Positions 3,678 through 23,839 of a stretch of 64,000 bases of DNA are shown piece after piece. Numbering within the stretch: position 1 is the stretch's first letter; every line of letters starts with the position of its first letter. Source of the stretch: Oceanobacillus oncorhynchi (lineage in GTDB: Bacteria > Bacillota > Bacilli > Bacillales > Amphibacillaceae); contig NZ_CDGG01000001.1 of the NCBI RefSeq assembly GCF_000821065.1, positions 2,356,001 to 2,420,000 on the forward strand, in the 5' to 3' direction. A model generated the notes under the pieces. The model was not told where the DNA came from. It saw nothing but the letters and a program-made list of their open reading frames with translations, and did no database searches. A program made the position numbers and the translations under genes.

Positions 3678-3831
3678 CACGGAGAACCGTCCGTAAAACT
3701 CCCGCCTCAAAATAAAGCGTAAAAATAAATTTATTTAGGCGGGAGATAACGGACGCTAACTCCCTGAATCACTCAACTAACATTCAGTGGGAGAAGAACA
3801 AAAACTCCCACTGAATGAAGTTTCGTTTTAT
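3678..3831 (+). mobile_element. 154-bp hairpin-rich mobile repeat, long copy 1
   Basis: Begins CACGGAGAACCG and ends GTTTCGTTTTAT, with TTTAT just outside the left end. Internal arms are GTCCGT/ACGGAC with CTCCCGCCT/AGGCGGGAG inside them, then a perfect 12-bp hairpin ATTCAGTGGGAG/CTCCCACTGAAT. No reading frame of note. The copy at 23512-23665 differs at one base in 154, so the two diverged recently. Length, secondary structure and TTTAT flanks recall the bcr1 repeat of the Bacillus cereus group; homology was not tested. Confidence 0.85.
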
Positions 3832-3912
3832 GTTACAGAAATGTTTCAATATATTCAAATGGGCTATAAGGCGATTATCCTTCGTAAGACGGGATAACGC
3901 TGCATCTAGGAT

Positions 3913-3937
3913 ATATAGCAGTTATTAACAGCTATAT
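3913..3937. promoter_or_regulatory. 25-bp dyad between the TRAP operon and the M20 gene
   Basis: Interrupted palindrome with arms ATATAGC, GTTA / TAAC, GCTATAT, symmetric about base 3925 with single unpaired bases at 3920 and 3930. It lies in the shared upstream region of dctQMP and the M20 hydrolase and looks like a repressor operator. No regulator gene is adjacent. The rest of 3562-4087 holds the repeats above and otherwise nothing I recognise. Confidence 0.45.
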
Positions 3938-4087
3938 GATACCAAATACTCTCTGATAGTTAAGAATACGCTCTAGCTTCTTCGGAGAGACTGTGCAGGA
4001 ATAGTGCTCATTTGTTGAATCGTCATGCAATATGTGTTATAAATATACATGTTGATTTATATATATACATTGAGTGAGGGAATAATA

Positions 4088-5263
4088 ATGAAAGCAAATT
4101 TAAAAAATGAATTAGATAAAGTGATACATGATTTAACAGATTTAAGCGATACAATTTTTAATCATCCAGAGTTGGGAGATCAAGAATTTGAATCAATGAA
4201 GCGGTTAACAGATTATTTAACAGTACATCAATTTGACGTAGAAAAAGGAATTGTTGGCCGTGATACTGCATTTAAAGCGACCTATTCAAGCGGAAAGCCT
4301 GGTCCTCAGATTGCATACTTAGCTGAGTATGATGCGCTTCCAGGAATCGGACATGGCTGTGGACATAATTTAATTGGAACCATGAGTGTCGGAGCAGGCG
4401 TGGTATTAAGCAAGCTGATCGATGAAATTGGCGGAACCGTTCATGTATTCGGTACGCCTGCTGAAGAGACAAACGGAGCAAAAGTGCCGATGAGTGAGCA
4501 GGGTGTATTTGAAGGGGTAGATGCTGCGATGATTTTACATCCCAGTGATGTTTCGCAGGAGAGCGGTGATTCCTTGGCAATGGATGCGATCCAGTTTGAA
4601 TATCATGGAAAAACAGCACATGCTGCAGCTGCTCCGGAAGAAGGAATTAATGCATTAGATAGCGTACTGCAATTATTTAATGGCATTAACGCATTAAGAC
4701 AGCATGTGAAATCAGATGTCCGTATTCATGGCGTCATTCCTGAAGGAGGAGAGGCTGCCAATGTGGTGCCTGATAAAGCAGTTGCTCAATTCTATGTCCG
4801 CGCAGCGGATCGCTCTTACCTGAATGAGGTTGTGGAAAAGGTGAAAAATATTGCTGAAGGCGCCGCTTCCATGACAGGAGCAACATTAGAGATATCCAAT
4901 TATGAATTAAGCTACGATGATATGACAACAAATAAAGTGTTATCCGATCTATTTACAGCAAATTTAAAAGAAACAAGCAGACTACCTGTGCACGGTTCAA
5001 AGGAAAGCTATGGCTCCATTGATATGGGAAATGTCAGCCAGGTCGTTCCGGCAATCCACCCTTATATCGGCTTAAACAAAGAAGGGTTGATTGGGCATAC
5101 GAAAGAATTTGCTGACCAGACGATTACAGAAGACGGGCACTTGGCTTTGTACGAAGGAGCGCTCTCTCTAGCAAAAACAGGCTATGATTTATTAACAAAT
5201 GAAGAAGCTTTGAAAGCAATGAAAGAAGAATTTAATAAAAATAAAGCGCAGGCTTTGGTCTAA
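4088..5263 (+). CDS. M20 family metallo-amidohydrolase/peptidase
   Basis: Zinc-dependent hydrolase of the M20 family, AbgB/amidohydrolase-like branch, which cleaves N-acyl amino acids or similar amides in the cytoplasm. Visible motifs are the metal-binding stretch EYDALPGIGHGCGHN, the catalytic acid in PAEETNGAKV, and the dimerisation-domain GKTAHAAAAPEEG. The start is the ATG at 4088 behind GTGAGGGA; the in-frame ATG at 4049 has no ribosome-binding site. The length of 391 residues is normal. Being divergent from a TRAP transporter, it is probably dedicated to the imported solute, which I cannot name. Confidence 0.85.
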   Translation: MKANLKNELDKVIHDLTDLSDTIFNHPELGDQEFESMKRLTDYLTVHQFDVEKGIVGRDTAFKATYSSGKPGPQIAYLAEYDALPGIGHGCGHNLIGTMSVGAGVVLSKLIDEIGGTVHVFGTPAEETNGAKVPMSEQGVFEGVDAAMILHPSDVSQESGDSLAMDAIQFEYHGKTAHAAAAPEEGINALDSVLQLFNGINALRQHVKSDVRIHGVIPEGGEAANVVPDKAVAQFYVRAADRSYLNEVVEKVKNIAEGAASMTGATLEISNYELSYDDMTTNKVLSDLFTANLKETSRLPVHGSKESYGSIDMGNVSQVVPAIHPYIGLNKEGLIGHTKEFADQTITEDGHLALYEGALSLAKTGYDLLTNEEALKAMKEEFNKNKAQALV

Positions 5264-5271
5264 CTAGTTAG

Positions 5272-5310
5272 AAAACAGCGGAGAAGGATGTTATCCTTCT
5301 CCGCTGTTTT
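5272..5310. terminator. Bidirectional terminator with perfect 18-bp stem
   Basis: Arms 5272-5289 and 5293-5310 are perfectly complementary (AAAACAGCGGAGAAGGAT and its complement) with a 3-nt loop. It serves both the M20 gene and the converging glutathione peroxidase gene, whose last codons and stop lie inside the stem-loop. Confidence 0.88.
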
Positions 5311-5791
5311 CCGATTTAAGAAGTGCTTCGATATCCTTTTCCATCGTATCCGGATTTTTTTGCGGACCAAATCGTTTTGCAACTTTTCCATCCGTATCAA
5401 CGAGGAATTTCGTAAAATTCCATTTGATCTGTTCGCCTAATATCCCTTTTTGCTCGGTCGTTAAAAAATCAAAAAGCGGATGCACATTTTTTCCTTTTAC
5501 GTCGACTTTGGAAAACATTTGAAATGTAACCCCGTAGTTCAACTGGCAAAATTGATTAATTTCTTCGTCTGCTCCTGGATCTTGATGACCAAATTGATTA
5601 CAAGGAAAACCGAGTACTTCAAAATTCTGATCTTTATACTTTTCATATAGTCTTTGTAAGCCTTCAAACTGAGGGGTGAAGCCGCATTTGCTTGCAGTGT
5701 TTACGATGAGCAGTACTTTCCCTTCATAATCTGACAGCGATTTCTCTTCGCCTTCCATTGTTTTTGCTGAAAAATCATAGATAGTTGTCAT
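5291..5791 (-). CDS. Glutathione peroxidase family thiol peroxidase
   Basis: Reduces peroxides, in bacilli most likely with thioredoxin or bacillithiol systems rather than glutathione. The 166-residue protein has the family's peroxidatic Cys36 in [11 protein letters not shown], the Gln motif FPCNQFG and the Trp motif KWNFTKF. A second Cys in the middle of the protein (NQFCQLN) may serve as the resolving residue. The C-terminal SENSGEG is encoded within the terminator stem, so the tail sequence is constrained by RNA structure. A good AGGTGAA site precedes the ATG. Confidence 0.93.
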
Positions 5792-5876
5792 ATTACTTCA
5801 CCTCGAAAAAAATGATAAGATGTACATGCATTAAAAATAATTCCAATTGTATTATAGCAAGAAAGGGCGTTTATTT

Positions 5877-6566
5877 GTGACTAAAATAATAAAAGATATT
5901 CCATTAAAGACGGATGAAAAAAATGCTTATTTACGTTATCTCACTACTACGGATTTACCCGATATTTTAGAATTGCAAACGATTGTTTATGAAGCTTTAG
6001 AGGATAAAAAAAGGCTGGAGACGCTGGATGAAAGTGAATTTCGGACGATATTAGAGGGAGAGCCGCTGATGGTCGGTATCTTTCATCAAGACAGGCTGAT
6101 TGCTTTCCGGGCTTTTCTGAATCCAGCTGCTGATGAAGAAGGGCTAGGAAGCGATATCGGCTTGACAGAAGAAGAATTTGCAGAAATCATTTATTCAGAG
6201 ATTTCCAATGTACATCCAAATTACCGGGGCAACCATTTACAAACCCAAATGGGCCGATTCATTATGAATCAATTAGATACTTCACTTTTCCGTTATGTCT
6301 TAGCTACAGTAGCTCCCGGAAATATTCCAAGCATGAAAGATAAATTTGCACTGGGGATGCGCATTTATAAAGTAAAAGAGAAGTATGGCGGAAAGCTGCG
6401 CTATGTTTATTGTAATGATTTAAAATTAAAAGAAATCAGGGCGGAAAATCAAACGGAGATAAATATGAACGATATTGACGGGCAAGAGAAGCTGATTGAA
6501 GAAGGTTATATTGGTGTAGAGATGAAGAAGTCAGATAGGGAATGGACAATTACTTATCAGAAATAA
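5877..6566 (+). CDS. GNAT-like acyltransferase
   Basis: About 229 residues with a GNAT-type layout: a beta-rich N-terminal half, then ISNVHPNYRGNHLQTQMGRFIM, which resembles the acetyl-CoA-binding V-x-P-x-x-R-G-x-G/H segment, and a final strand region with VLATVAPGNIPSMKDKFALG. The GTG at 5877 behind GAAAGGG is preferred to the earlier TTG at 5847. The substrate cannot be told. It is a single gene ending in its own terminator. Confidence 0.7.
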   Translation: MTKIIKDIPLKTDEKNAYLRYLTTTDLPDILELQTIVYEALEDKKRLETLDESEFRTILEGEPLMVGIFHQDRLIAFRAFLNPAADEEGLGSDIGLTEEEFAEIIYSEISNVHPNYRGNHLQTQMGRFIMNQLDTSLFRYVLATVAPGNIPSMKDKFALGMRIYKVKEKYGGKLRYVYCNDLKLKEIRAENQTEINMNDIDGQEKLIEEGYIGVEMKKSDREWTITYQK

Positions 6567-6568
6567 GA

Positions 6569-6602
6569 AACAGGCTGGGGAATCTAAATTCTCCAGCCTG
6601 TT
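6569..6602 (+). terminator. Terminator after the GNAT gene
   Basis: Stem AACAGGCTGGGGAAT / ATTCTCCAGCCTGTT with a 4-nt loop, followed by T-rich sequence. It is shared with the converging trhO gene. Confidence 0.85.
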
Positions 6603-6617
6603 TTCATATCTATATGA

Positions 6618-7595
6618 TTAAACCGTTGTTGTTTCTGGAAGTGTTTCCCCAATCGCTGCTAAGCGGGCTTTCACTTCTTCTGTGGATAAATCATGTTCTT
6701 TCACATAAAGGTTACGTGGTGTCACCCGGCATTCATGCGTGCATCCGCGTAAGTATTTATGTTCATTTTCCTCAGAAGCAAGCATTTGTCGATTACACTC
6801 TGGATTTGCACAGTTTACATAACGCTCACAAGGCTCTCCGTCAAAGTAATCCTTGCCAATGATGACATGTTCTTTTTGGTTAACAGGAACGCTGATACGC
6901 TCGTCAAATACATACAGCTGTCCATCCCATAACTCGCCTTGAACTTCCGGATCCTTTCCGTAAGTAACAATGCCGCCATGTAATTGACCTACATCATCAA
7001 AGCCTTCATCCTTCAGCCAGCCGCTGAATTTCTCACAGCGAATGCCGCCTGTGCAATATGTTACGATTTTTTTATCTTCAAGCATTTCTTTGTTTTCTTG
7101 GACCCACTCGGGCAGTTCACGGAATGTCTTGATATCTGGGCGGATTGCGCCGCGGAAATGTCCCAAATCATATTCATAATCATTGCGGGCATCCAATACG
7201 ATGGTATCTTCGTCCTGTAATGCTTCATAGAATTCTTTCGGTTCCAAATATTTTCCGGTTGTTTCTAACGGGTTAATATCATCTTCTAAACGCAGTGTAA
7301 CTAATTCGTTTCTGGGACGGACATGCATTTTTTTGAAAGCATGCTTATCATGAGCATCTACTTTGAATGTCATATCTTCAAAGCGAGAATCTGCATGCAT
7401 ATGCTCCATATAGGCATTTGTCTGTTCCACTGTCCCTGAAACAGTTCCGTTAATGCCTTCTTCAGCTACTAAAATACGTCCTTTTAGCCCAAGCTCGTTG
7501 CAATATTTAAGATGCTCAGCCGCAAATGCTTCCGGATCCTCAATATGCACATAATTGTAATAAAGTAAAACGCGATATTCTTGATTTGTTTCCAT
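6618..7595 (-). CDS. trhO: tRNA uridine(34) hydroxylase, rhodanese-domain protein
   Basis: TrhO/YbfQ-type protein that hydroxylates U34 in certain tRNAs at the wobble position. An N-terminal acylphosphatase-like domain (from [14 protein letters not shown]) precedes a rhodanese domain with the catalytic loop [14 protein letters not shown], then a Cys-rich C-terminus (CANPECNRQ and CTHECR). The ATG at 7595 has AGGTGG at proper spacing and gives 325 residues, the normal length. The open frame extends to 7658 without a ribosome-binding site. Confidence 0.92.
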
Positions 7596-7819
7596 TTGGT
7601 TTACCACCTGTTCATTTATATTTGCAAGATACAAATGAGTCTGGTTTCGTTTATTCATTTTTCGTCTTGCAATTCTTTATTTTAGCATGTTTTATTGCTT
7701 GATTCCAGTCCATAAGACAAACGCGCCTCTCATTATTTATCTCGCTGTAGACGTGAGCATAGTCAATCTGAACTTTTTCTCCATAAGATGGAGTATCTAT
7801 GAAGGAAGGAGATGAAATA

Positions 7820-8029
7820 ATGAGCGAATCATCTAAAGACCCAATGATGTCCAATAAAGTGGTTGAGGTAATGGTAGACAGTATTTTCCGTAAGAACGGG
7901 ATTAAACCAGAAGAAGTGAAAAATAACCTTTCTGAAAAACAGCGTGAAATGTTAAAAGAAATGGTGACGGATTTAAAAGCGCAGGTAGAGGAGTTTCAGG
8001 AAAAGAAGAATGAGTCTAAAGCAGAATAA
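7820..8029 (+). CDS. Small unrecognised helical protein (69 aa)
   Basis: I do not recognise this family. It is a small, charged, probably all-helical soluble protein (MSESSKDPMMSNKVVEVMVD start, Lys/Glu-rich end). An excellent GGAAGGAGA site precedes the ATG at 7820; the in-frame ATG at 7799 sits on that site. It is divergent from trhO and 200 bp upstream of two spore-coat genes, but its own terminator separates it from them. A role in sporulation is possible but unsupported. Confidence 0.6.
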   Translation: MSESSKDPMMSNKVVEVMVDSIFRKNGIKPEEVKNNLSEKQREMLKEMVTDLKAQVEEFQEKKNESKAE

Positions 8030-8039
8030 TTTCTATCTA

Positions 8040-8076
8040 AAATGTGAAGGAAATATATGATTTCTTCACATTTTTT
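8040..8076 (+). terminator. Terminator of the 69-aa gene
   Basis: Stem AAATGTGAAG(g)AAAT / ATTT(c)TTCACATTT with a T-run. Confidence 0.85.
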
Positions 8077-8188
8077 GTGCTGCTTTCCCAAAACGGCAGC
8101 ATTGCATATTCCCTAAAAATTGGACTAGGTGATTTTGTTATTTTCCGTGTTCTTTGTGCTGGTGTACAGGAAGTATAGTTATCAATAC

Positions 8189-8197
8189 CATAAATTA
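8189..8197 (+). promoter_or_regulatory. Possible sigma-K -10 element of the cotX-like operon
   Basis: CATAAATTA fits the sigma-K -10 pattern CATAnnnTA and lies about 40 bp before the first coat gene. I see no matching AC -35 at the usual distance, so an auxiliary activator such as GerE would be needed. The call is tentative. Confidence 0.3.
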
Positions 8198-8228
8198 ATT
8201 TAGAACTTTAAGAAAGGAGTGTTAATCG

Positions 8229-8762
8229 ATGTCTGTCTACAGAAGTAAAACAGAAGGGACCAACCGTTTCCACGATGACTTATATGGAAACGATTATGCA
8301 TGTCAACCTGAAGAAAATGCCTGTGACACAAAAGATAATCAATACGCACCGGCTTATTATGATAATTCCTTCAGCCCGAATTTTGGCGAGGCGAGTGTTG
8401 TTCAAACTGCAGATGAATTTTCGTATATGGAACAAGAATCTGCAGAGGTTATCTGGGTTAAAGAATCCTGTAATATTAATGTGAATTCAACAGATACGCA
8501 AATCGGCGCATCCTTACAAGCAGCACTGCAATTAGCTATTTCCATTGTTATCCGTTTATCCATTGCTGATTCTGGAGATGAGGAAGCGGTAGAACAAGAA
8601 TTAATGCAAACAATCAGTGCCAGCCAGGTAAATAAACAAAAAATATTTATCTATAATACAAAAGATGCAACTGTGACAACAACCGACACAGATATTTCTG
8701 TTAATATTCAGCTGCTTTTACAAATCCTCATCGCTTTGGTAATCATGATTGATATTCTGTAA
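8229..8762 (+). CDS. Spore coat protein, CotX/CotV domain
   Basis: Component of the insoluble outer spore coat or crust. Residues 1-75 are polar and Asn/Asp/Tyr-rich. Residues 81-115 and 146-177 are two copies of the Coat_X pattern: a V-N/T-T-T-D-T-beta segment followed by a very hydrophobic helix (for example TVTTTDTDISVNIQLLLQ), separated by a charged linker. AGAAAGGAGTG precedes the ATG. The next gene is a paralogue 34 bp downstream, so the two form an operon, as in cotVWX clusters. Confidence 0.88.
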   Translation: MSVYRSKTEGTNRFHDDLYGNDYACQPEENACDTKDNQYAPAYYDNSFSPNFGEASVVQTADEFSYMEQESAEVIWVKESCNINVNSTDTQIGASLQAALQLAISIVIRLSIADSGDEEAVEQELMQTISASQVNKQKIFIYNTKDATVTTTDTDISVNIQLLLQILIALVIMIDIL

Positions 8763-8796
8763 TCCAAATTTGGTATAGAAAGGAGTGTAGACGAAC

Positions 8797-9228
8797 ATGA
8801 TGCACAAAAAAGAGTGGAGAGCCCTAGATTATTGTGATGACGAACGAAACAACCAGGCAGAAGTAGAGGAAGCAGCCAAACAAAAGAATATAACGAAGCA
8901 ATCCTCTGAGGAATGGATTATCATTAAAGACTCTGAGGGAGTTACAGTAACAACGACAGATACGCAAGCAGCAATCAGTTTACAGGTAGGGATTGAAGTA
9001 GCTATTGCTGTGGTGCTCAGCATTACATTGGCTGATTCAGACAAGGCAAAGGCTGTTTTCCAGGATTTAGAACAAGTGATGAAAACGAAACAAAGCAACC
9101 GTCAAAAAACTATTGTTGAAAAATCGAAAAATGTAAATATCACTACTACCGATATTGATATTGCTATTAATATTCAGTTATTGATTCAGCTGCTGCTGGC
9201 AATTGTAGTAAGTCTGGATATTTTATAA
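8797..9228 (+). CDS. Spore coat protein, CotX/CotV domain (paralogue)
   Basis: A 143-residue paralogue of the preceding gene with a shorter, Lys/Glu-rich N-terminus and the same two-repeat architecture (about residues 49-81 and 112-143, each with TTTD plus a hydrophobic run). It ends in the same DIL tripeptide as its neighbour. GAAAGGAGTG precedes the start. Expected to be made in the mother cell late in sporulation. No cotY or cotZ follows in the window. Confidence 0.88.
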   Translation: MMHKKEWRALDYCDDERNNQAEVEEAAKQKNITKQSSEEWIIIKDSEGVTVTTTDTQAAISLQVGIEVAIAVVLSITLADSDKAKAVFQDLEQVMKTKQSNRQKTIVEKSKNVNITTTDIDIAINIQLLIQLLLAIVVSLDIL

Positions 9229-9267
9229 GAACATTAATTGCGAAAAATAACGGTACGTTTTTTACCT

Positions 9268-9300
9268 GAGCTCCCTTTATAAAACTGTTAAAGGGAGCTC
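9268..9300 (+). terminator. Terminator of the coat operon
   Basis: Perfect 12-bp arms GAGCTCCCTTTA / TAAAGGGAGCTC, followed by TATTCATTT. The tail is only moderately T-rich. Confidence 0.75.
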
Positions 9301-9493
9301 TATTCATTTAAGAATAGATATACAGAGCTGCGGTATTTTATACTTTTCATAGGTGAAAACTATGCATAATTCCTGTTTTTAGCAATTTTAAAAATTAATG
9401 AATTTTATAGTGTAGAACGCTATCGTCATATGAAAACGCTTCTTCCGTTGAAAAACATCGAATTTTGTCTAATAATCTTCATCGATATTCACT

Positions 9494-9522
9494 TGCATTT
9501 TTTTATGAAAGGGGTTAAAATA
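9494..9522 (+). promoter_or_regulatory. Sigma-A promoter of the cold-shock gene
   Basis: TTGCAT (9494-9499), 17-bp spacer, TAAAAT (9517-9522). The predicted transcript would have a 5' leader of about 110 nt, typical of cold-shock mRNAs whose leader controls stability and translation. The AT-rich stretch 9302-9490 shows nothing else I recognise. Confidence 0.65.
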
Positions 9523-9638
9523 ATACTTGCAAAAGGTAATTGGAGTTACAAGAATACTTTACGATCTCTTTTTCAAGACGGTGTAAAAGTATTTAAGTTT
9601 CAATGACTTTGCATATCTTGTATAAGGAGGTCATGATA

Positions 9639-9836
9639 ATGACTGGTAAAGTAAAATGGTTTAATGCAGAAAAAGGTTTTGGTTTCATCGAGCGTGAAGA
9701 CGGAGATGACGTATTTGTACACTTCTCTGCAATTCAAGCTGAAGGATTCAAAACTCTTGAAGAAGGTCAAGATGTTGAATTCGAAATCGTAGAAGGCAAC
9801 CGTGGCCCGCAAGCTGCAAACGTTGTTCGTCTTTAA
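9639..9836 (+). CDS. Cold-shock protein, CspA/CspB family
   Basis: A 65-residue single-stranded nucleic-acid-binding beta-barrel. Both RNA-binding motifs are intact: KGFGFI (RNP1) and VFVHFSAI (RNP2). It acts as an RNA chaperone in cold and stationary phase. The start is the ATG at 9639 behind AAGGAGGTCATGATA; the frame is open from 9603 but that is leader. A long leader and strong ribosome-binding site indicate high expression. Confidence 0.96.
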
Positions 9837-9873
9837 TTCGAATGATATAAAACGCTGGATAAGCCAGCTAAAA

Positions 9874-9906
9874 AACCTCGAATGTTTTCTAGAAACATTC
9901 GAGGTT
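9874..9906 (+). terminator. Terminator of the csp gene
   Basis: Stem AACCTCGAATGTTT / AAACATTCGAGGTT with a 4-nt loop and a TTTTTT tail. Confidence 0.92.
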
Positions 9907-9927
9907 TTTTCTGAGGAAAAAGTTTTG

Positions 9928-10824: not shown

Positions 10825-10962
10825 TGTCTCTCTCCTTTGTATAAATGTTGTATCTAAATCTTGTCATGAAAATTCAAAAAACGCAAATAATTATTAAGAA
10901 AAAACAGCTGAATTTCCAATAAATTCTTTTCACTCGTTAAAATATACTTGGCAACGATTGCC

Positions 10963-10992
10963 TTGCATCGAATTTTTCCATTTACATATAGT
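10963..10992 (+). promoter_or_regulatory. Candidate promoter of yteA
   Basis: TTGCAT (10963-10968), 18-bp spacer, TATAGT (10987-10992). CATATAGTA at 10985 also fits a sigma-K-like -10. The promoter abuts a remnant of the TTTAT repeat. Confidence 0.4.
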
Positions 10993-11010
10993 ATAAAACG
11001 AAACTTCAAT
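10993..11010 (-). repeat. Solo right-end remnant of the TTTAT repeat
   Basis: Read on the minus strand, these 18 bases match the last 18 bases of the 154-bp element (ending GAAGTTTCGTTTTAT) with one mismatch. No left end is present. It could be a relic or chance; 15 consecutive matching bases make chance less likely. Confidence 0.4.
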
Positions 11011-11044
11011 CCTAAATAAATATAGATAGAAGGGGAGGATAACG

Positions 11045-11665: not shown

Positions 11666-11672
11666 TTCACAA

Positions 11673-14297: not shown

Positions 14298-14553
14298 TGT
14301 AAAGCACCTCCAAGTTATTTGATTTAATTTTATTATAGTACCGACCATGGGAAATCCTTTGGTATAATTGTGTAAAAACTGTGTAATCTTAAATCCCGTT
14401 TGTCAGAAGCAGGGTGTTCATGTAAAAATAAATAGTATAGAATGAAAGATTGTTGAAAATGGGGATATTCTTTCTTCCTATATTAGAATTACCCGATTTG
14501 TTTTTTTTAATAAACGTGAAAACGCCTGAAAAAAATCAAGTATATTGCTTTAT

Positions 14554-14601
14554 CACGGAGAATCGTCCGTAAAACTCCCTCTGAATAAAGTTTCGTTTTA
14601 T
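14554..14601 (+). repeat. Short (48-bp) copy B of the TTTAT-flanked repeat
   Basis: Flanked on the left by TTTAT (14549-14553) and ending in TTTAT. It is exactly bases 1-26 joined to 133-154 of the long element, with few substitutions. It lies in the htrA-cssR divergent promoter region, 85 bp before the cssR start. The remainder of 14298-14686 shows no other feature I can support. Confidence 0.78.
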
Positions 14602-16749: not shown

Positions 16750-16756
16750 TGAATGA

Positions 16757-16805
16757 TAAAAAGACTTCTTTCTTTGCCTGATTGAGCGTGGAAGAGGTCT
16801 TTTTT
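16757..16805 (+). terminator. Terminator of cssRS
   Basis: AAAAAGACTTCTT / AAGAGGTCTTTTT with a long loop and T-run. The stretch 16807-17105 contains GC-rich imperfect repeats but no recognisable gene or RNA. Confidence 0.7.
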
Positions 16806-17105
16806 ATCGCAGCCCCAGTGTAAATCTCCGCAGAAAAAGCGATTTTCTTTTTCCGCCGCAGGCATAAATATGACTATACTTTGGTCTGCGCCTGTGGTCC
16901 CGCAATTAGCAAGGCTTCTTTAAAGGGAGCTAAAGACAAGTCTCTGGAAACGCAGTATATTTCTATAGCGGCTGCTTACAGTAAAATTATATCTGCTAAG
17001 TCATCCAGCCATTTTGGTGAAAATCCTTCATGAAATGATAATATAAAATACATTGTTATAATAATACATGAGCAATCAACACATCCTAAAGAAAAGAAAA
17101 ACAAT

Positions 17106-17135
17106 TTTACAAATTTCCTCATTATATGATATAAT
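17106..17135 (+). promoter_or_regulatory. Sigma-A promoter of typA
   Basis: TTTACA (17106-17111), 18-bp spacer, TATAAT (17130-17135); start about 36 nt before the typA ATG. Confidence 0.65.
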
Positions 17136-17177
17136 AAATTGGTTTTACATTCGATATGTTAGAGGAGCGTACTATTT

Positions 17178-19001
17178 ATGCAATTAAGAAATGATATTCG
17201 TAATATCGCAATTATTGCACACGTTGACCACGGGAAAACAACGTTAGTGGATCAGCTATTAAGATATTCTGGGACTTTTCGGGAAAACGAGCACGTAGAC
17301 GAACGTGCGATGGACTCTGGAGATATAGAACGTGAACGCGGGATTACAATCTTAGCGAAAAATACAGCTGTAAAATATAAAGATTCAACAATTAATATCC
17401 TTGATACACCAGGTCACGCCGACTTTGGCGGTGAAGTGGAACGTATTATGAAAATGGTTGATGGTGTTGCCTTAGTCGTGGACGCCTACGAAGGAACCAT
17501 GCCGCAAACACGTTTCGTATTAAAAAAAGCTTTAGAACAAAAACTGACACCAATTGTGGTATTAAATAAAGTTGACCGTCCAAATGCCAGACCGGCAGAG
17601 GTCGTTGACGAAGTATTAGATTTATTTATTGAATTAGGAGCGGACGATAACCAATTAGAATTCCCTGTTGTTTATGCATCTGCGTTAAATGGAACCTCCG
17701 GATTAGAGCCGGAAGATCAGCAGGAAACAATGGATCCAGTCTTTAATACCATTATGGAGCATATTCCGGCTCCAGTTGATACAAGAGAAGAGCCGTTACA
17801 GTTTCAAGTAACTTTACTGGATTATAATGACTATGTCGGCCGAATCGGAGTTGGACGTGTGGTCCGCGGTTCTATCAAGGTAGGACAGCAGGTTGTTGTA
17901 TTAAAAGAAGATGGATCACAAAAATCCTTCCGTGTTTCCAAATTATTTGGTTTCATTGGTTTAAAACGGGTTGAAATCCAAGAAGCTGTTTCTGGTGACA
18001 TCGTAGCTCTGGCTGGAATGGAAGACTTAAATGTCGGTGAAACGGTATGTCCGGCTGAGCATCCTGATCCGCTTCCATGGCTGCGTATTGATGAGCCGAC
18101 CCTGCAGATGACCTTTGTTGTAAACAACAGTCCATTTGCCGGAAAAGAAGGGAAGTATATTACGTCCCGCCGTATTGAAGAGCGTTTATTAAAAGAATTA
18201 GAAACCGATGTAAGCTTACGTGTGGAACCGACCAGTTCACCAGACGCCTGGACTGTTTCCGGACGCGGAGAGCTGCATTTGTCTATTCTTATTGAGAACA
18301 TGCGCCGTGAAGGCTATGAGCTTCAATTGTCTAAGCCGGAAGTAATCATCAAAGATATTGACGGTGTAAAATGTGAACCGATGGAGCGGGTCCAAGTAGA
18401 TGTTCCGGAAGAACACACAGGAGCAATTATGGAATCCTTAGGAGAACGTAAAGGCGAAATGCTTGATATGGCTAATCAAGGAAACGGACAAGTTCGTATT
18501 GAGTTTAAAGTGCCATCCCGCGGTCTTTTAGGATATACTACAGAATTTATGTCGCAGACACGCGGTTATGGTATTATTAACCATACCTTTGAGGCATACG
18601 AGCCTGTTATTAAAGGACAGGTCGGCGGCCGCCGTGAAGGTGTGCTAGTTGCATTGGAAAAAGGGAAAGCATCTACCTATGGAATCATGAACTTGGAGGA
18701 TCGCGGAGTTATCTTTATTACTCCCGGAACGGAAGTTTATGAAGGGATGATTGTCGGAGAGCATAATCGTGAGAATGACTTAACGGTTAATATCACAAAA
18801 GAAAAGCACTTAACTAACGTGCGTTCAGCTACAAAAGACCAGACATCCACTATCCGTAAGACAAGAGATATGTCTCTGGAGGAAGCCCTGCAATATTTAA
18901 GTGAGGATGAGTATTGTGAAGTAACACCAGAAACAATCCGTCTTCGTAAGAAAATCTTAAATAAAAACGAACGTGAAAAAGCAGCGAAAAAAAGTAAGTA
19001 A
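17178..19001 (+). CDS. typA: Ribosome-associated GTPase TypA/BipA
   Basis: Translational GTPase of the EF-G/LepA superfamily that helps 50S assembly and growth under cold and other stress. G1 is AHVDHGKTT (residues 14-22), the switch region includes RERGITI, G3 is DTPGHADFGGE and G4 is NKVDR; domain II, a domain III-like region (PSRGLLGYTTEFMSQTRG) and the TypA-specific C-terminus follow. Length 607 is standard. It is a single gene with its own promoter and a strong terminator. Confidence 0.97.
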   Translation: MQLRNDIRNIAIIAHVDHGKTTLVDQLLRYSGTFRENEHVDERAMDSGDIERERGITILAKNTAVKYKDSTINILDTPGHADFGGEVERIMKMVDGVALVVDAYEGTMPQTRFVLKKALEQKLTPIVVLNKVDRPNARPAEVVDEVLDLFIELGADDNQLEFPVVYASALNGTSGLEPEDQQETMDPVFNTIMEHIPAPVDTREEPLQFQVTLLDYNDYVGRIGVGRVVRGSIKVGQQVVVLKEDGSQKSFRVSKLFGFIGLKRVEIQEAVSGDIVALAGMEDLNVGETVCPAEHPDPLPWLRIDEPTLQMTFVVNNSPFAGKEGKYITSRRIEERLLKELETDVSLRVEPTSSPDAWTVSGRGELHLSILIENMRREGYELQLSKPEVIIKDIDGVKCEPMERVQVDVPEEHTGAIMESLGERKGEMLDMANQGNGQVRIEFKVPSRGLLGYTTEFMSQTRGYGIINHTFEAYEPVIKGQVGGRREGVLVALEKGKASTYGIMNLEDRGVIFITPGTEVYEGMIVGEHNRENDLTVNITKEKHLTNVRSATKDQTSTIRKTRDMSLEEALQYLSEDEYCEVTPETIRLRKKILNKNEREKAAKKSK

Positions 19002-19026
19002 TGAAGTGGAAGTACAAGCTGACAGA

Positions 19027-19077
19027 AAAGCCGGTTCGATTTTTACTAGAAATAGTAAGAATTGAACCGGCTTTTTT
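19027..19077 (+). terminator. Terminator of typA
   Basis: AAAAGCCGGTTC / GAACCGGCTTTTTT with further pairing toward the loop. Confidence 0.9.
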
Positions 19078-19160
19078 ATATTAGAGAAGTATATAATTTT
19101 TAACGCAGAAGAATTCCGAAGCTAACACCAAATTGAATGTAGTTTATCCCCATGGATTTT

Positions 19161-19209
19161 GATGAAGAACCGTCCATATAAACTCCCAAGGAGTGAAGTT
19201 TCGTTTTAT
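19161..19209 (+). repeat. Degenerate short copy C of the TTTAT repeat
   Basis: The right half (GTGAAGTTTCGTTTTAT) is well kept; the left half is diverged (GATGAAGAACCGTCCAT) and the left TTTAT is lost. 49 bp. It lies between typA and the class V aminotransferase gene. Confidence 0.6.
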
Positions 19210-19251
19210 GCCATCTAAATAGTCAGTCAGCATAGAAGAAAATATATATGA

Positions 19252-19311
19252 TTATAATTTATTTTGTATTGGAGTAAACGTATAAGAAGTACTACTATTA
19301 TAATTATAGAA
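19252..19311 (+). promoter_or_regulatory. Conserved promoter block, copy 1 (putative LysR target)
   Basis: This block aligns with 21919-21979: TTATAATTTATTTTGTATTGG then GAGT, a variable middle, and CTATTATAA-TATA at the -10 position. The two lie upstream of the two PLP-enzyme genes that flank the LysR gene, so they are probably bound by the same regulator. Confidence 0.55.
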
Positions 19312-19437
19312 AAAATATGTAAATTAAAGAGAAACAGCTGATAGCATATTATATAAGTTAAAGTCTTCCTGATTTGTATCGAAAAATTTCATTTGAAGCA
19401 GGCTTGTATCACCACTAAAAATTATTGGAGGGATAAA

Positions 19438-20733
19438 ATGGCGGGATTAACGAAGGGCAGATTATTTAGCAATGAATTATTAGAAGAAATTAGAGACAGG
19501 TTCGCCTATATTGATATGGATCCGTTGACACAGAAAAAGCGGGTGTTTTTAGACAATGCCGGCGGTTCTTTTCGGTTAAAAACTGCCAATCAGAAATTTG
19601 CTCAGTACGACTTGATGCCTGACCACCCTTTGCGCAATCATGACACAGCGAAATTTTTATTCGAAGTGGAGCAAAGAGGCATAGAAGATGCAAGAACGAT
19701 ATTTAATGCAAAGCAGGGGAGTATTGCCACTTACTTTACTGCGTCTCAAGCAATGTTTGCAGCAACCGGTGTCATTGCGGAAAATATAGAGGGAAGCAAT
19801 ATTGTGACAACGGAATTAGAGCATCCGTCCGCTTATGATGCTGCCAAGTTTTATGCAAATAAGCTGGGAAAAGAATTTCGTGTAGCTAAAACAAACCGGG
19901 TAACTGGAGGTGTGGATGTTGCGGAAATCACCAGACTGATTGATGAGAATACAAGCTTTTTAAGTGTGATTTATGCATCTAATATTTCAGGTACGATTTT
20001 AGATATTGAAATGATTGTAAAGGAAGCCAGGAAAATCAAGCCGGATTTATACATTATCGTCGACGCTGTGCAGCATGCTCCGCACGGTATCATTGATATC
20101 GAAAAAACCCCTGTAGATGCGATTAACTTTGCACCATATAAATTTTTCGGGGTAAGAGGAAGCGGTTTTGCATATATTTCCCAAAGGGCAGCAGCGCTTC
20201 CGCATCAACGTTTAGCTGGAAAGGATGACAGTGATCTGCAGCTGGGAAGCTCCACACCGGGTCATTTTGCTTCTCTTAGCGAAATTGTCGATTATGTCTG
20301 CTGGATAGGGAGTAAATTTTCGGAGAAACAGGATAGAAGAAGGCTGTATGAGGAAGGAATGACACGGATCGCTTTACATGAAAGAGCATTGCTGGAAGCG
20401 ATACTTCATGGCACAGATAAAGTAAAAGGATTAAGAAATATCCCTGGCGTTACCGTCCATTTAGATGATGAAGATTTATCTAAGAGGGATCTGATTATCG
20501 GAATAACAATTGATCACTTAGATTATCAAGAGGCTGTTCGACAATATGAAGCGGAGCATATTGTGGTTTATGAGCGTGCTGCTTCCAGTATTTATTCTAA
20601 AAGAATGTTAGAGTCTTTTGATCTCGACGGTGTTGTAAGGGTATCTCCCCTACACTGCAATAGTGTGGAGGAAATAGAAGCATTTCTGCGTGTTACACAA
20701 AAAATAGCGGAAAGAGTTAAAACAGTAAGTTAA
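19438..20733 (+). CDS. Class V aminotransferase-fold PLP enzyme
   Basis: Fold-type I PLP enzyme of the cysteine desulfurase/isopenicillin-N epimerase group, 431 residues. The PLP-contacting Asp is in IIVDAVQHAPHG and the Schiff-base Lys in NFAPYKFFGVRGSG. I do not see the desulfurase persulfide Cys loop, so a lyase, epimerase or aminotransferase role is more likely than sulfur transfer. The ATG at 19438 behind TTGGAGGG is chosen over 19393. Its promoter block is shared with the second PLP enzyme at 22038, suggesting a joint pathway. Confidence 0.8.
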   Translation: MAGLTKGRLFSNELLEEIRDRFAYIDMDPLTQKKRVFLDNAGGSFRLKTANQKFAQYDLMPDHPLRNHDTAKFLFEVEQRGIEDARTIFNAKQGSIATYFTASQAMFAATGVIAENIEGSNIVTTELEHPSAYDAAKFYANKLGKEFRVAKTNRVTGGVDVAEITRLIDENTSFLSVIYASNISGTILDIEMIVKEARKIKPDLYIIVDAVQHAPHGIIDIEKTPVDAINFAPYKFFGVRGSGFAYISQRAAALPHQRLAGKDDSDLQLGSSTPGHFASLSEIVDYVCWIGSKFSEKQDRRRLYEEGMTRIALHERALLEAILHGTDKVKGLRNIPGVTVHLDDEDLSKRDLIIGITIDHLDYQEAVRQYEAEHIVVYERAASSIYSKRMLESFDLDGVVRVSPLHCNSVEEIEAFLRVTQKIAERVKTVS

Positions 20734-20762
20734 CAATTAAATTTTTGCTTGGTGCTCCTCAT

Positions 20763-20912
20763 TCAAGTAAGTGATTCTTTATTTATGGCAGTATGAGTGT
20801 CCGCCATTTCCCCTGCTGAGCAGAAGGGAAAAACGGTCACTCCTTTTCCTGCTTCATGTAAATCTGAAATACTTGCTTCCCAGCGCTCTGCAAAATCATT
20901 TTTTACAGCGTA
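20763..20912 (-). pseudogene. Possible C-terminal remnant of an unidentified gene
   Basis: Fifty codons open on the minus strand with no start codon, an upstream in-frame stop, and a protein-like composition (includes DLHEAGKGVTVFPFCSAGEM). It looks like the end of a lost gene just downstream of the LysR gene. I could not assign a family; it may be chance. Confidence 0.3.
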
Positions 20913-20919
20913 TTAAAAC

Positions 20920-21876
20920 TCACAGATGATCGATTTTTTTCTCCTTGATAAATGAAATAAAATCTGTGCCGACTTTCGGAAGCGGCTGTGTTTTTTTATA
21001 ATACAGCATAATATTTTGACGGGCGTTGTCATCATCAATTTTGTAAAAGCATAATTTATTGGTTGCTTCTAAGTAATGCGTGACGCTGGCCCGAACGAAA
21101 GCGATTCCCTTTTCATTACTGGCAATGTAATAGGAAGTCAGCATCTGGTCAAGGTACATGGATATGGTTGGTGTGAAACCGGCATTTCTACACATTTTTA
21201 AACTTCGCTGGTTTAGGTCATTCCCTTTTTTTAATAGCAGGAAATCTTCCTTCTGAAATTCTTTCAGGTTTATCTTAGGATATCGTTCACTTAAATAGTT
21301 TCCATTAGCTATATTTTGAAAGGTGATTTGATAGTTACGAAGCTTATTATTTATTTCATAGCTTGAAGGCACTGCCAGTAAAATATGTTCTTCCGCCCAG
21401 ACAAAGGAATCAAACATTTTAGAAATGTCCTTTTTCTCGACATCGATTATCATATCAACAATCCCTGTGCGCAGACATTTTATCAGATCATCCGCATTGG
21501 CTTCCAGAAGATTTACCTTATAATCGGGATATTCTTCCTTAAACTCTTGAGCGATTTTCGGCAGGATATGTGTGCAAAAGAAGGATGCGCCTCCAACACT
21601 GATGGTACCTTGATTATCCTCTGCTAAGTGATTAAAATAACTCCTCATTTCTTTTTCAATGTTCATAATAGTCTCGATGGATTCAATATAATATTCTCCA
21701 GCCTTTGTTAATTGGATGGGATTGCTGCTTCTATCGAAAATAGGAAGACCTATCTCTTCTTCCACTTTTTTAATCGTTGCACTGAGTGCCGGCTGAGAAA
21801 TATATAATTCGCCGGCAGCTTTCGAAAAGCTCTTATTTAAATATACTGCATATACATATTCCATATTTTTCAGCAT
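20920..21876 (-). CDS. LysR-family transcriptional regulator
   Basis: N-terminal winged helix-turn-helix (YAVYLNKSFSKAAGELYISQ, then PALSATIKKVEEEIG), residues about 1-62, then a periplasmic-binding-protein-like effector domain. 318 residues from the ATG at 21876, which has TGAGGAGG 6 nt upstream; the ATG at 21891 overlaps that site. Divergent from the aminotransferase at 22038, so it most likely controls that operon and, from the shared block, also the gene at 19438. Confidence 0.9.
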   Translation of the reverse strand: MLKNMEYVYAVYLNKSFSKAAGELYISQPALSATIKKVEEEIGLPIFDRSSNPIQLTKAGEYYIESIETIMNIEKEMRSYFNHLAEDNQGTISVGGASFFCTHILPKIAQEFKEEYPDYKVNLLEANADDLIKCLRTGIVDMIIDVEKKDISKMFDSFVWAEEHILLAVPSSYEINNKLRNYQITFQNIANGNYLSERYPKINLKEFQKEDFLLLKKGNDLNQRSLKMCRNAGFTPTISMYLDQMLTSYYIASNEKGIAFVRASVTHYLEATNKLCFYKIDDDNARQNIMLYYKKTQPLPKVGTDFISFIKEKKIDHL

Positions 21877-21918
21877 TTCATTCCTCCTCAAATTATGTAT
21901 AGAGAAATACCTATAGTG

Positions 21919-21979
21919 TTATAAATTATTTCGTATTGGAGTTCGTATTTAAGATGGGATACTATTATAACTATAATGA
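21919..21979 (+). promoter_or_regulatory. Conserved promoter block, copy 2 (putative LysR target)
   Basis: Counterpart of 19252-19311 in the divergent promoter between the LysR gene and the aminotransferase gene. TTATAAATTATTTCGTATTGG and ACTATTATAACTATAAT are shared almost base for base; the spacing differs by about 2 bp in the middle. Confidence 0.6.
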
Positions 21980-22037
21980 ATTTGCAGATATTTTGTAAAG
22001 GTATACTATTTTTCAATTATAGAAAAGAGGGTTAATC

Positions 22038-23264
22038 ATGGATTTGATAGAAGAAAAGTTTTTAAAGCTTGGTGCGGAATATGCTCCTGGTCAAGAAGGA
22101 CGCCAGAAAACGAATGAAATCGATGTTCCTTTTGAGAAAATTCCCGGTAGGCCGGTGGACTTTTCACATGGGGATGTGGATGCTTTTCAACCAATTCCGG
22201 GCTCTTTAGATGCCTTTGTGGAAGGAGTTCATCTTGGAGGGAAGCAGGCCTACACAGAATATCGCGGGGGGATGGATATCCGGGAGAAGCTAGCTGAAAA
22301 GCTTGCTGATTTTACGAACACAAGCATTGACCCGGATCAACATGTTATCCTAACACCTGGAACCCAAGGAGCATTATTTCTAGCAATGGGATCAACGGTG
22401 GCCAGAGGAGATAAGGTTGCTATTGTAGAACCGGACTATTTTGCCAATCGGAAGCTTGTTGAATTTTTTGATGGGGAAGTCGTTCCTGTCCAGCTGGATT
22501 ATTACAAAACAGACACATCAGCCGGTTTAGAGCTAACGCAGCTGGAGGATGCTTTTCAATCAGGAGTAAAACTCTTTTTGTTCTCTAATCCAAATAATCC
22601 GACGGGTGTTATTTATTCCCGGGATGAAATTCAGGAGATTGCCGGTTTAGCAGAGCAATACGGGGCAACCGTGATTGTTGATCAACTCTACTCGCGGCAA
22701 ATTTTTGAAGGAAGGACGTATACTCATTTATGTGCGGAGAACCGGATTGATCGAGAAAATGTCATTACGATTATGGGACCTTCTAAAACAGAATCACTTA
22801 GCGGATACAGGTTAGGGGTCGCTTTTGGATCGGAAAAAATGATTAACCGAATGGAAAAACTGCAGGCTATTGTATCATTGCGCGCTGGCGGATATAATCA
22901 GGCCGTCTTGAAAACATGGTTTTCTGAACCGGCAGGCTGGATGGAGGAGCGAATTAAAGCGCATCAGGCAATCCGTGATGACCTGGTCGCCCAAATACGT
23001 GCAGCTGAGGGGTTTCAGGTAAGAGCGACAGAAGCGGGCAGTTATTTATTCCCGAGAATTCCGGAACTGGGTATTTCAATCAATGAGTTTGTGAAAGCAC
23101 TTCGTCTTCAGGCTGGTGTGACCGTAACACCAGGAAAGGAATTCGGTCCACAATTCGGTGACAGCTTTCGGATAAATTTTTCACAGGATCATCAAGCGGC
23201 GGTAGAAGCAATGGAACGTGTTATCCAAGTAGTGGAGGCGTATCGAAATGCATCCATCAAATGA
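22038..23264 (+). CDS. Class I/II PLP-dependent aminotransferase
   Basis: Aspartate-aminotransferase-fold enzyme, 408 residues. Typical motifs are SNPNNPTGV, the PLP Asp/Tyr region IVDQLYSRQIFEG, and the Schiff-base Lys in GPSKTESLSGYRLG. The amino donor cannot be read from sequence. AGAGGG precedes the ATG. The next reading frame (a RidA protein, now broken) overlaps its end by 17 bp, a sign of translational coupling: RidA proteins remove reactive enamines released by PLP enzymes. Confidence 0.88.
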   Translation: MDLIEEKFLKLGAEYAPGQEGRQKTNEIDVPFEKIPGRPVDFSHGDVDAFQPIPGSLDAFVEGVHLGGKQAYTEYRGGMDIREKLAEKLADFTNTSIDPDQHVILTPGTQGALFLAMGSTVARGDKVAIVEPDYFANRKLVEFFDGEVVPVQLDYYKTDTSAGLELTQLEDAFQSGVKLFLFSNPNNPTGVIYSRDEIQEIAGLAEQYGATVIVDQLYSRQIFEGRTYTHLCAENRIDRENVITIMGPSKTESLSGYRLGVAFGSEKMINRMEKLQAIVSLRAGGYNQAVLKTWFSEPAGWMEERIKAHQAIRDDLVAQIRAAEGFQVRATEAGSYLFPRIPELGISINEFVKALRLQAGVTVTPGKEFGPQFGDSFRINFSQDHQAAVEAMERVIQVVEAYRNASIK

Positions 23265-23839
23265 AGGGAATAATCTGATTCCACAGGGGAAATACCTTCC
23301 TGCATCCCGGTTTGGAAATATTATTTATACAGCCGGGATGACACCAAGAAAGAATGGTGTGCTGCTTCAGAGCGGAAAAGTTATTGCAGCAGAGCCTGTA
23401 TCAACCTATTATCCAGCAGTCAGACAAGCAGCTGCAAATGCCTTAACTGCTGCTGTAAACACACTTATGGAGGGAGAACAACTCATGCAGATATTATCAC
23501 TCACCGTTTATCACGGAGAACCGTCCGTAAAACTCCCGCCTCAAAATAAAGCGTAAAAATAAATTTATTTAGGCGGGAGATAACGGACGCTAGCTCCCTG
23601 AATCACTCAACTAACATTCAGTGGGAGAAGAACAAAAACTCCCACTGAATGAAGTTTCGTTTTATGTGAATGCAGAGGAAACATTTCAATCCCATTCAAG
23701 TCTGGCAAATGCTGCTTCCGAATATTTATCTGAACAATTGGGGGAGGCGGGGATAGGCAGCAGGGCAGCAATTGGTGTATCCTCGTTACCGGGAAATGCA
23801 CCTGTTGAAATTCAATTGGTTGCTGGAGTGAGCTTATAA
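23248..23839 (+). pseudogene. RidA-family gene interrupted by the 154-bp repeat
   Basis: The 5' part encodes a RidA/YjgF-type protein (PASRFGNIIYTAGMTPRKNG, ANALTAAVNTLM, ILSLTVY), whose normal role is to hydrolyse 2-aminoacrylate-type imines. The 154-bp element then enters after LTVY. The rest of the protein resumes after it as YVNAEETFQ through GNAPVEIQLVAGVSL. Removing the insert and one TTTAT restores a continuous frame. Since 154 is not a multiple of three, the gene is frameshifted; at best it makes a chimeric 102-residue protein lacking the C-terminal third. Confidence 0.88.
23512..23665 (+). mobile_element. 154-bp hairpin-rich mobile repeat, long copy 2
   Basis: One base different from copy 1 (3678-3831). 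TTTAT precedes it at 23507-23511 and ends it at 23661-23665. The interrupted gene needs only one TTTAT, so insertion either duplicated the pentamer or targeted it. It encodes no protein and must have been moved by an enzyme encoded elsewhere. Confidence 0.88.

What the first reader, a model, noticed from the sequence alone, without database searches (positions are those of the whole stretch)
3678..23665. Near-identical 154-bp TTTAT-flanked mobile repeat
Two copies (3678-3831 and 23512-23665) are the same length and differ at one base, although 20 kb apart. Each is preceded by TTTAT and ends in TTTAT, and each folds into two strong hairpins (GTCCGT/ACGGAC around CTCCCGCCT/AGGCGGGAG; a perfect 12-bp ATTCAGTGGGAG hairpin). 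CTCCCTGAAT (bases 83-92 of the element) can also pair with the left arm of hairpin 2, so alternative folds exist. There is no transposase, so it is moved in trans. Established: bcr1 of the B. cereus group is about 155 bp, palindromic and TTTAT-flanked. Inference: this is a bcr1-like or IS200/IS605-type palindrome-associated element in another genus.
Basis: partly seen in the sequence, partly recalled or inferred. Interest (0 to 1): 0.72.

Follow-up and report, generated by a model that had tools for sequence, protein, structure and literature searches.

The report
Mobile hairpin repeat without transposase
The two near-identical 154-base sequences are copies of a tiny gene-free jumping element that folds into hairpins, occurs in many kinds of bacilli, and seems to jump as single-stranded DNA during chromosome copying, but the enzyme that moves it has not been found.

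Summary
Copies 3678-3831 and 23512-23665 differ at one base (element base 82) and lie between TTTAT repeats. They belong to a large interspersed family: at least 69 elements in the host genome, and an exact right-end motif in 54 of 159 genomes (22 of 46 genera) of the host's family, host included. Mobility is shown: copy 2 splits a RidA-like gene, and joining its flanks at one TTTAT gives a frame that aligns without a gap to intact relatives. Twenty-two diverse members share a covarying fold. The most telling result is strand bias: copies lie on the G-rich strand (lagging-strand template) in 31 of 37 cases in the host, 43 of 44 in sampled parts of another genus, and 28 of 34 and 22 of 30 in two congeners; a fifth genome (16 of 25) is not significant. 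Hairpin-bearing ends without terminal inverted repeats plus strand bias point to IS200/IS605-type single-strand transposition, as in haloarchaeal PATEs. The mover is missing: one single-contig genome with 30 exact right ends has no Y1 transposase hit, and another with 286 has only partial ones. bcr1 looks similar, but no B. cereus-group plasmid matched and no bcr1 sequence was available to compare.

The parts
3678..3831 (+). copy 1 of the element (154 bp, ends in TTTAT)
3673..3677 (+). TTTAT left of copy 1 (target; also the right end of the upstream 48-bp copy)
3681..3684 (+). outer helix, 5' arm GGAG (pairs with 3760-3763)
   Evidence: covarying helix; position
3688..3694 (+). left helix 5' arm CGTCCGT (pairs with 3749-3755)
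3699..3707 (+). left hairpin inner 5' arm CTCCCGCCT (pairs with 3737-3745)
3737..3745 (+). left hairpin inner 3' arm AGGCGGGAG
3749..3755 (+). left helix 3' arm ACGGACG
3760..3763 (+). outer helix 3' arm CTCC
3781..3793 (+). right hairpin 5' arm CATTCAGTGGGAG
3805..3817 (+). right hairpin 3' arm CTCCCACTGAATG
3818..3831 (+). conserved right-end tail AAGTTTCGTTTTAT
3630..3677 (+). 48-bp short form in tandem with copy 1 (its left TTTAT is 3625-3629)
14554..14601 (+). second 48-bp short form (left TTTAT 14549-14553)
23512..23665 (+). copy 2 of the element (154 bp, one base different)
23507..23511 (+). TTTAT target left of copy 2
23248..23511 (+). 5' part of the RidA-like gene split by copy 2
23666..23838 (+). 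3' part of the split RidA-like gene

Best explanation
It is a non-autonomous, transposase-free mobile element that works like a PATE (palindrome-associated element of the IS200/IS605 type). SHOWN: it stands 3' of TTTAT, carries TTTAT at its right end, joining the flanks at one TTTAT restores the target gene of copy 2, the element has no gene, divergent members keep one covarying fold, and in four of five genomes tested most copies lie with the same strand in the lagging-strand template. INFERRED: during replication that strand becomes single-stranded and folds; an HUH-type (Y1-like) nuclease supplied in trans binds the hairpins, cuts after the TTTAT on the left and after the TTTAT on the right, joins the ends into a single-stranded circle, and inserts it after another TTTAT in lagging-strand template DNA. 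Insertion at the TTTAT of an older copy would give the head-to-tail arrays. The 48-bp forms look like deletions between the two AAAACTCCC repeats; because many stand at separate TTTAT sites they may also be mobile (not shown; they may be deletions in place).
For: Empty site: the joined flanks of copy 2 give an unbroken 145-aa RidA-like frame, 98 of 136 aligned residues identical to the intact gene of a congener (G025), gap-free through the junction. Copies: 48 blastn matches with only 40 of 130 candidates scored; 37 left ends and 111 right ends. Strand bias: G000 31 of 37 left ends (p 4e-5) and 32 of 40 right ends with at most 1 mismatch, 66 of all 100 listed; G141 43 of 44 in 20 sampled regions (p 5e-12), or 42 of 44 with a shorter exact motif (my count); G010 22 of 30 (p 0.016); G026 28 of 34 by chromosome arm (my count) or 18 of 25 by local skew. 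In G000 the bias is kept where genes give no cue: 15 of 20 between convergent or divergent genes, 7 of 11 where both genes oppose replication. Orientation that follows replication is described for IS200/IS605 members (passages of PMC5371812), as are subterminal hairpins and right-end cleavage sequences (passages of PMC6006769). Fold: 89.0% of cells paired against 73.7% shuffled and 34-48% slid; 21 of 26 pairs change on both sides. Parallels to PATEs (passages of PMC3119063): no inverted ends, 52-bp terminal-only forms by repeat-mediated deletion, small repeats inserted into the palindromes, and IS200-type transposons all pseudogenes in one strain.
Against: No mover found. G070 (one contig, 30 exact right ends) has no Y1_Tnp hit, nor has G026; G141 (286 right ends) has two partial hits, no complete gene seen. 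Of 70 Y1 loci 12 carry a loose right-end motif within the fetched flanks (about 1.5 kb); the two that I looked at (L171 in full, L246) are separate elements beside the gene, the other ten were seen only as motif lines. TnpB loci end otherwise. No gene-bearing version was recognised, but 236 of 393 right ends had no recognisable left end, flanks were short, and one candidate holds a masked stretch. Strand bias is not significant in G070 (16 of 25, p 0.23), nor with exact motifs alone in G026 (4 of 6) and G010 (12 of 18). On G141 contig C8, which I did not sample, the listed copies are mixed (10 minus, 4 plus), and the end of C9 has 2 plus and 1 minus. Conserved unpaired bases between the hairpins are more than simple IS200/IS605 ends would seem to need. 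A guide-sequence match to TTTAT was not established.
Confidence: 0.6

Rival explanations
1. A structured RNA is transcribed from the element and copied back into DNA at the replication fork by a reverse transcriptase in trans, the 3' UUUAU pairing with the target strand.
For: The fold and the conserved unpaired motifs look RNA-like; fork-primed retro-insertion can also give strand bias (recalled); 84 of 165 and 62 of 155 repeat copies of two B. cereus strains were found in transcripts (passage of PMC3446304).
Against: 48-bp forms with only the two ends stand at many separate TTTAT sites. In the right hairpin G-T mismatches are only mildly commoner than A-C: 23 against 12 in 98 of 107 elements, 8 against 7 in 21 of 28 distinct ones. 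Reverse transcriptases were not searched for.
Confidence: 0.15
2. A classical MITE moved by a DDE transposase that duplicates TTTAT.
For: TTTAT on both sides and one in the joined target; bcr1-bcr3 are called MITE-like in the literature (passage of PMC3446304).
Against: No terminal inverted repeats seen on reading the ends; TTTAT has one orientation to the element in the intact copies examined, though the search patterns favoured that; strand bias. DDE transposases were not searched for.
Confidence: 0.08
3. A site-specific recombinase integrates and excises the element at TTTAT, as suggested for B. cereus repeats.
For: [quoted passage not shown] head-to-tail arrays.
Against: TTTAT is very short for a recombinase core and occurs 213 times on the + strand of the window alone; recombination does not predict replication-strand bias. 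Recombinases were not searched for.
Confidence: 0.07
4. An orphan TnpB/IscB guide-RNA derivative of IS605.
For: By my tally, TnpB hits occur in 28 of 34 genomes with at least 4 exact right ends and in 55 of the other 125 (phylogeny not controlled); TTTAT could be a TAM (conjecture).
Against: Of 25 TnpB loci whose downstream stretch was printed, 20 end in TTCAA and 3 in TTCAC (my reading); G141 and G073 have many copies and no TnpB hit; no Rfam IS605 or HEARO match.
Confidence: 0.05
5. An immobile regulatory RNA or terminator kept at conserved places.
For: Conserved covarying fold; 68 of 69 host elements lie outside predicted open frames.
Against: Insertion in a gene with intact relatives; tandem insertions; very different copy numbers among congeners.
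Confidence: 0.03

Closest known systems
PATEs (palindrome-associated transposable elements) of Haloquadratum, related to IS605-type transposons
   Same: Transposase-free, no inverted ends, near-terminal palindromes, short terminal-only forms that look like repeat-mediated deletions (48 against 52 bp), small repeats inserted in the palindromes, transposases mostly dead.
   Different: Bacilli rather than haloarchaea; no resident IS605 with the same palindromes found; conserved middle sequence and outer helix; sequence relation not tested.
bcr1 (group A repeats bcr1-bcr3) of the Bacillus cereus group
   Same: Size (as the finding and PMC2267715 give it), TTTAT motif, palindromic fold, no transposase, tens of copies.
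   Different: No match to B. cereus-group plasmids in blastn; bcr1 itself could not be aligned; strand bias of bcr1 not known to me.
IS200/IS605 family ends (IS608, ISDra2)
   Same: Subterminal hairpins on one strand, a cleavage sequence at the right end, a short target at the left, orientation that follows replication.
   Different: No tnpA; the proposed left and right cleavage sequences are the same (TTTAT); guide interaction not shown.
REP/BIME repeats moved by RAYT (TnpA-REP)
   Same: Hairpins in many intergenic copies, clusters.
   Different: Longer, weaker Y1 hits that I take for RAYT-like (my label, from length and score) are not among the hits of G000, G010, G026 and G070; the element is larger and has a TTTAT target.
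Rfam RF01690 Bacillaceae-1 RNA
   Same: Found inside long forms of the element.
   Different: A separate hairpin module in the loops in either orientation, not the element itself.

Membership tests
PATE (by the definition read in passages of PMC3119063) | too short to code for a transposase | tested here: met
   154 bp; no gene-bearing version recognised among the 157 of 393 right ends with a recognised left end
PATE (by the definition read in passages of PMC3119063) | no terminal inverted repeats, palindromes near the termini | tested here: met
PATE (by the definition read in passages of PMC3119063) | no target duplication | tested here: inconclusive
   TTTAT on both sides, one in the joined target; it can be read as a duplication or as target plus right-end TTTAT
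PATE (by the definition read in passages of PMC3119063) | palindromes similar to those of IS605-type transposons | tested here: not met
   not seen at the resident Y1 or TnpB loci sampled; loci not sampled remain open
IS200/IS605 family mobilisation | orientation follows replication (lagging-strand template) | tested here: met
   4 of 5 genomes; G070 not significant
IS200/IS605 family mobilisation | Y1 HUH transposase able to act in the host | tested here: not met
   no intact PF01797 gene seen in G000, G026, G070, G141; a helper may have been lost
IS200/IS605 family mobilisation | guide tetranucleotides at the hairpin feet pairing with the cleavage site | tested here: inconclusive
   AA or TAA stands 5' of both helices, but the pairing rule was not tested
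bcr1 | TTTAT flanks, about 155 bp, palindromic, interspersed | tested here: met
bcr1 | sequence homology to bcr1 | tested here: inconclusive
   no B. cereus-group plasmid match; no bcr1 sequence was available for a direct alignment
MITE of a DDE transposon | terminal inverted repeats shared with an autonomous element | tested here: not met
   no inverted ends on reading; autonomous DDE elements were not searched for

The most novel reading that the evidence does not exclude
A very widespread family of structured elements in bacilli is moved as single-stranded (or RNA-derived) DNA at replication forks by an enzyme that is not a recognisable Y1 transposase, perhaps a host-borne or still undescribed HUH-like or reverse-transcribing machine; the same machine could be the missing mover of bcr1.
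Probability: 0.28. Interest if true: 0.82.

Novelty: new variant of a known kind. Interest (0 to 1): 0.62.

Why it matters
[quoted passage not shown] A similar-looking family with 286 right ends in one genome, and 43 of 44 sampled copies there on one replication strand, makes the mechanism directly testable. It would bring PATE-like single-strand transposition to a large group of bacilli, show one place where Rfam's Bacillaceae-1 RNAs sit, and set a clear puzzle: heavily invaded genomes without an intact known transposase.

Tried and rejected
IS605/TnpB as parent: the 30 best TnpB loci were scanned for the right end; three showed a close motif (L136, L149, L165) and a few others a loose one, none seen as the end of the TnpB element; downstream stretches were printed for 25 of 30 and end otherwise. 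Y1 transposases as parent: Pfam Y1_Tnp was searched in the own genome, 28 genomes of the genus and 159 of the family, then 7 high-copy genomes; 70 Y1 loci were scanned, 12 with a loose motif, of which L171 was read in full. Element limits were compared for 29 Y1 loci, 3 of them without a partner: the limits found differ from ours. Autonomous version: left-to-right distances in 393 right ends; 236 had no left end by my loose pattern; 20 pairs lay 401-5000 bp apart and read as chance pairings across host genes, except that L326 holds a masked stretch and cannot be judged. Viral contigs: 0 matches. Phages: no match, one 24-bp match at E 0.5. Plasmids: Pseudalkalibacillus, Cytobacillus, Peribacillus and one Klebsiella grimontii record, plus a weak Alteromonas match at E 2. 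Rfam: no credible match to the element itself. Gene direction as cause of the strand bias: not supported in the host (31 informative contexts), not tested elsewhere. G-T against A-C test: inconclusive. My recollection that the second subfamily is bcr1 itself was not borne out by plasmid searches.
Full report
What is there. Copies 1 and 2 are 154 bp, differ at element base 82 and sit between TTTAT repeats in unrelated flanks. The window lies at 2,356,001-2,420,000 of a 4,608,004-bp single-contig genome. Two contig lengths of one congener (G009: 22,164 and 265,128) equal those of Oceanobacillus indicireducens records, so the genus is probably Oceanobacillus (inference).

Family size. Blastn gives 48 matches in the own genome, with 40 of 130 candidates scored. 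With up to 3 mismatches the left-end pattern gives 37 and the right-end pattern 111 hits, none for the reversed control. Merging the 37 left ends with 57 of the 63 right ends of up to 2 mismatches (six had no fetched sequence and were left out), with hits on one strand within 330 bp counted once, gives 69 elements; tandem copies are merged, so this is a lower bound. Of these 68 lie outside predicted open frames of at least 90 codons; the exception is copy 2. Among the paired elements of the fetched loci (my count, 54 rows after dropping one row that spans two elements and four left ends without a right end) 23 are 47-48 bp, one is 64 bp, 23 are 143-162 bp and 7 are 180-319 bp. An exact TTTAT stands on the left in 42 of the 54, in a search whose left pattern began with TTTAT and allowed 7 mismatches. 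In the genus 25 of 28 genomes match, own included. Over the family an exact 21-base right end occurs in 54 of 159 genomes and 22 of 46 genera, own genome included; the reversed control is 0 in all 159 rows. A strict hairpin-plus-tail pattern hit 105 stretches of named genomes (80 listed): Oceanobacillus, Lentibacillus, Ornithinibacillus, Virgibacillus, Cytobacillus, Mesobacillus, Domibacillus, Lederbergia, Planomicrobium, some Bacillus sp. and a Bacillales MAG. None of the 80 is labelled as B. cereus group.

Mobility. Copy 2 lies inside a RidA-like gene (Pfam PF14588, below the curated cut-off on the 86-residue piece). The frame stops inside the element at 23554. Joining the flanks at the TTTAT gives 145 residues that align without a gap to open genes of four congeners: 98 of 136, 85 of 141, 87 of 138 and 87 of 141 identities. 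Copy 1 stands at the TTTAT end of a 48-bp copy, and head-to-tail arrays occur in other genomes.

Fold. From 107 collected elements 28 remained after clustering at 82% identity. I aligned 21 of these plus copy 1, leaving out seven with an extra hairpin module or an irregular body. They share an outer helix, a left helix with an inner stem, and a right hairpin: 89.0% of cells pair against 73.7% after shuffling and 34-48% after sliding; 21 of 26 pairs show changes on both sides; the covariation score is 0.438 against 0.175. The structure was derived from the same alignment, which favours it over the slid versions. The inner stem shifts by one column between subfamilies, so only three of its pairs were counted. 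Conserved unpaired stretches include GTAA after the left helix, CAACTAA before the right hairpin, and the tail GAAGTTTC..TTTAT.

Strand bias. GC skew of fetched loci in G000 is mostly positive up to about 3.6 Mb and mostly negative beyond, with near-zero or opposite values at several loci; I set the border at 3.75 Mb. 31 of 37 left ends and 32 of 40 right ends (at most 1 mismatch) lie on the G-rich strand; over the 100 listed of 111 right ends it is 66 of 100. Between convergent or divergent genes 15 of 20, and between genes that both oppose replication 7 of 11, keep the bias; with genes along replication it is 27 of 37. By local skew: G141 43 of 44, G010 22 of 30, G026 18 of 25, G070 16 of 25; with exact motifs only 31 of 31, 12 of 18, 4 of 6 and 14 of 23. 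For G026 I counted 28 of 34 by arm, border near 2.4 Mb. G010 and G070 regions were taken from hit lists without regard to strand. For G141 I had seen the strand list and chose regions with several copies on C9 and C10, where listed copies run one way (29 of 29 minus up to 1.04 Mb of C9, 21 of 21 plus on C10; also 6 of 6 minus on C7); C7, C8 (10 minus, 4 plus) and the end of C9 (2 plus, 1 minus) were not sampled, and only 73 of 286 copies were listed. Insertions shared by descent between G000 and G026 were not removed. The G-rich strand is usually the leading-strand sequence and hence the lagging-strand template (established knowledge). Passages read state that IS200/IS605 members prefer the lagging-strand template and so mirror replication direction (PMC5371812; PMC6006769).

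The missing mover. The own genome has three Y1_Tnp hits: the longest has a stop inside and covers 2-109 of 121 positions, the others 45 positions each. G070 (single contig, 30 exact right ends), G026 and G025 have none. G141 (286 right ends with at most 1 mismatch) has two partial hits (positions 27-92 and 33-80) in frames that do not read as complete genes. TnpB loci end in other sequences. By hand tally, Y1 hits occur in 31 of 34 genomes with at least 4 exact right ends and 88 of the other 125; TnpB in 28 of 34 and 55 of 125. Such genes are thus commoner in invaded genomes (phylogeny not controlled), which leaves room for a lost IS200/IS605 helper. Strain-specific insertions in a genome whose IS200-type transposons are all pseudogenes are reported for Haloquadratum (passages of PMC3119063).

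Modules. Long forms carry extra hairpins in the loops. Of 12 Rfam RF01690 Bacillaceae-1 matches at or above the gathering score in the loci scanned, 7 lie between a left-end candidate and a right end, 1 (L307) lies in an element body with a right end but no clear left end, 1 (L199) lies in a 540-bp left-right pair, and 3 (L132, L203, L211) have no right end within 220 bp downstream on either strand. Of the 8 placed, 4 point along the element and 4 against it. This resembles the small mobile repeats that attack PATE palindromes. The loci were chosen because they hold elements, so nothing follows about Bacillaceae-1 elsewhere.

What it works like and what it is. It works most like a PATE moved by IS200/IS605 chemistry on the lagging-strand template (confidence 0.6). 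I do not file it as an IS200/IS605 derivative, because no parent with these ends and no intact Y1 enzyme was found, nor as bcr1, because sequence homology was not shown. On print: searches for bcr1 with TTTAT or repeat element, MITE with TTTAT, Oceanobacillus or Lentibacillus repeats and palindrome-associated elements listed no paper whose title or abstract start speaks of this family. Stem-loop families of B. halodurans and B. anthracis in PMC2267715 (passages) were not compared. The library lacks most subscription papers; the 2004 bcr1 paper is not held.

Noticed in passing
L051:1617-1715, L120:1407-1473, L127:1293-1359, L128:1255-1319 and 1408-1473, L196:8546-8644, L320:6262-6328: Rfam Bacillaceae-1 RNA lies inside long forms of the element, in both orientations; it looks like a second, nested mobile hairpin repeat.
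   Followed up: partly
G000 whole chromosome (loci L012-L067, L234): GC skew is mostly positive from about 0.3 to 3.6 Mb and mostly negative from 3.8 to 4.6 Mb; with the origin near the contig start (order of genes that I recognise from memory in L234) the two replichores would be very unequal.
   Followed up: no
window 10993-11013 (-) and 19189-19209 (+): Two further right ends of decayed copies without a clear left end.
   Followed up: partly
L032, L046, L048, L065: The own genome also holds a second subfamily with right end TTTCACTTTAT (TTTCATTTTAT in L032) and left part CGCAGTGTAACTGGCTG, like forms seen in other genera.
   Followed up: partly
G070: L216, L218, L222, L228, L230, L232: Several G070 copies share longer left flanks or a common right flank (CCTCCTTTTT-like), as if a larger composite repeat carries the element.
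   Followed up: no
L377:3001-3063 (CP079755.1, Klebsiella grimontii plasmid pNY3A): A right-half match at 80.6% to this element in a plasmid labelled Klebsiella; contamination or transfer not resolved.
   Followed up: no
L107, L176, L180, L182, L183: A resident IS200-like element of other genera starts at or near TTTAT (TTTATGGTCTTTGAAAACCCC... or close), so at least one local Y1 element may use such a target, though its ends differ; L181 has TTATTATGG instead.
   Followed up: no
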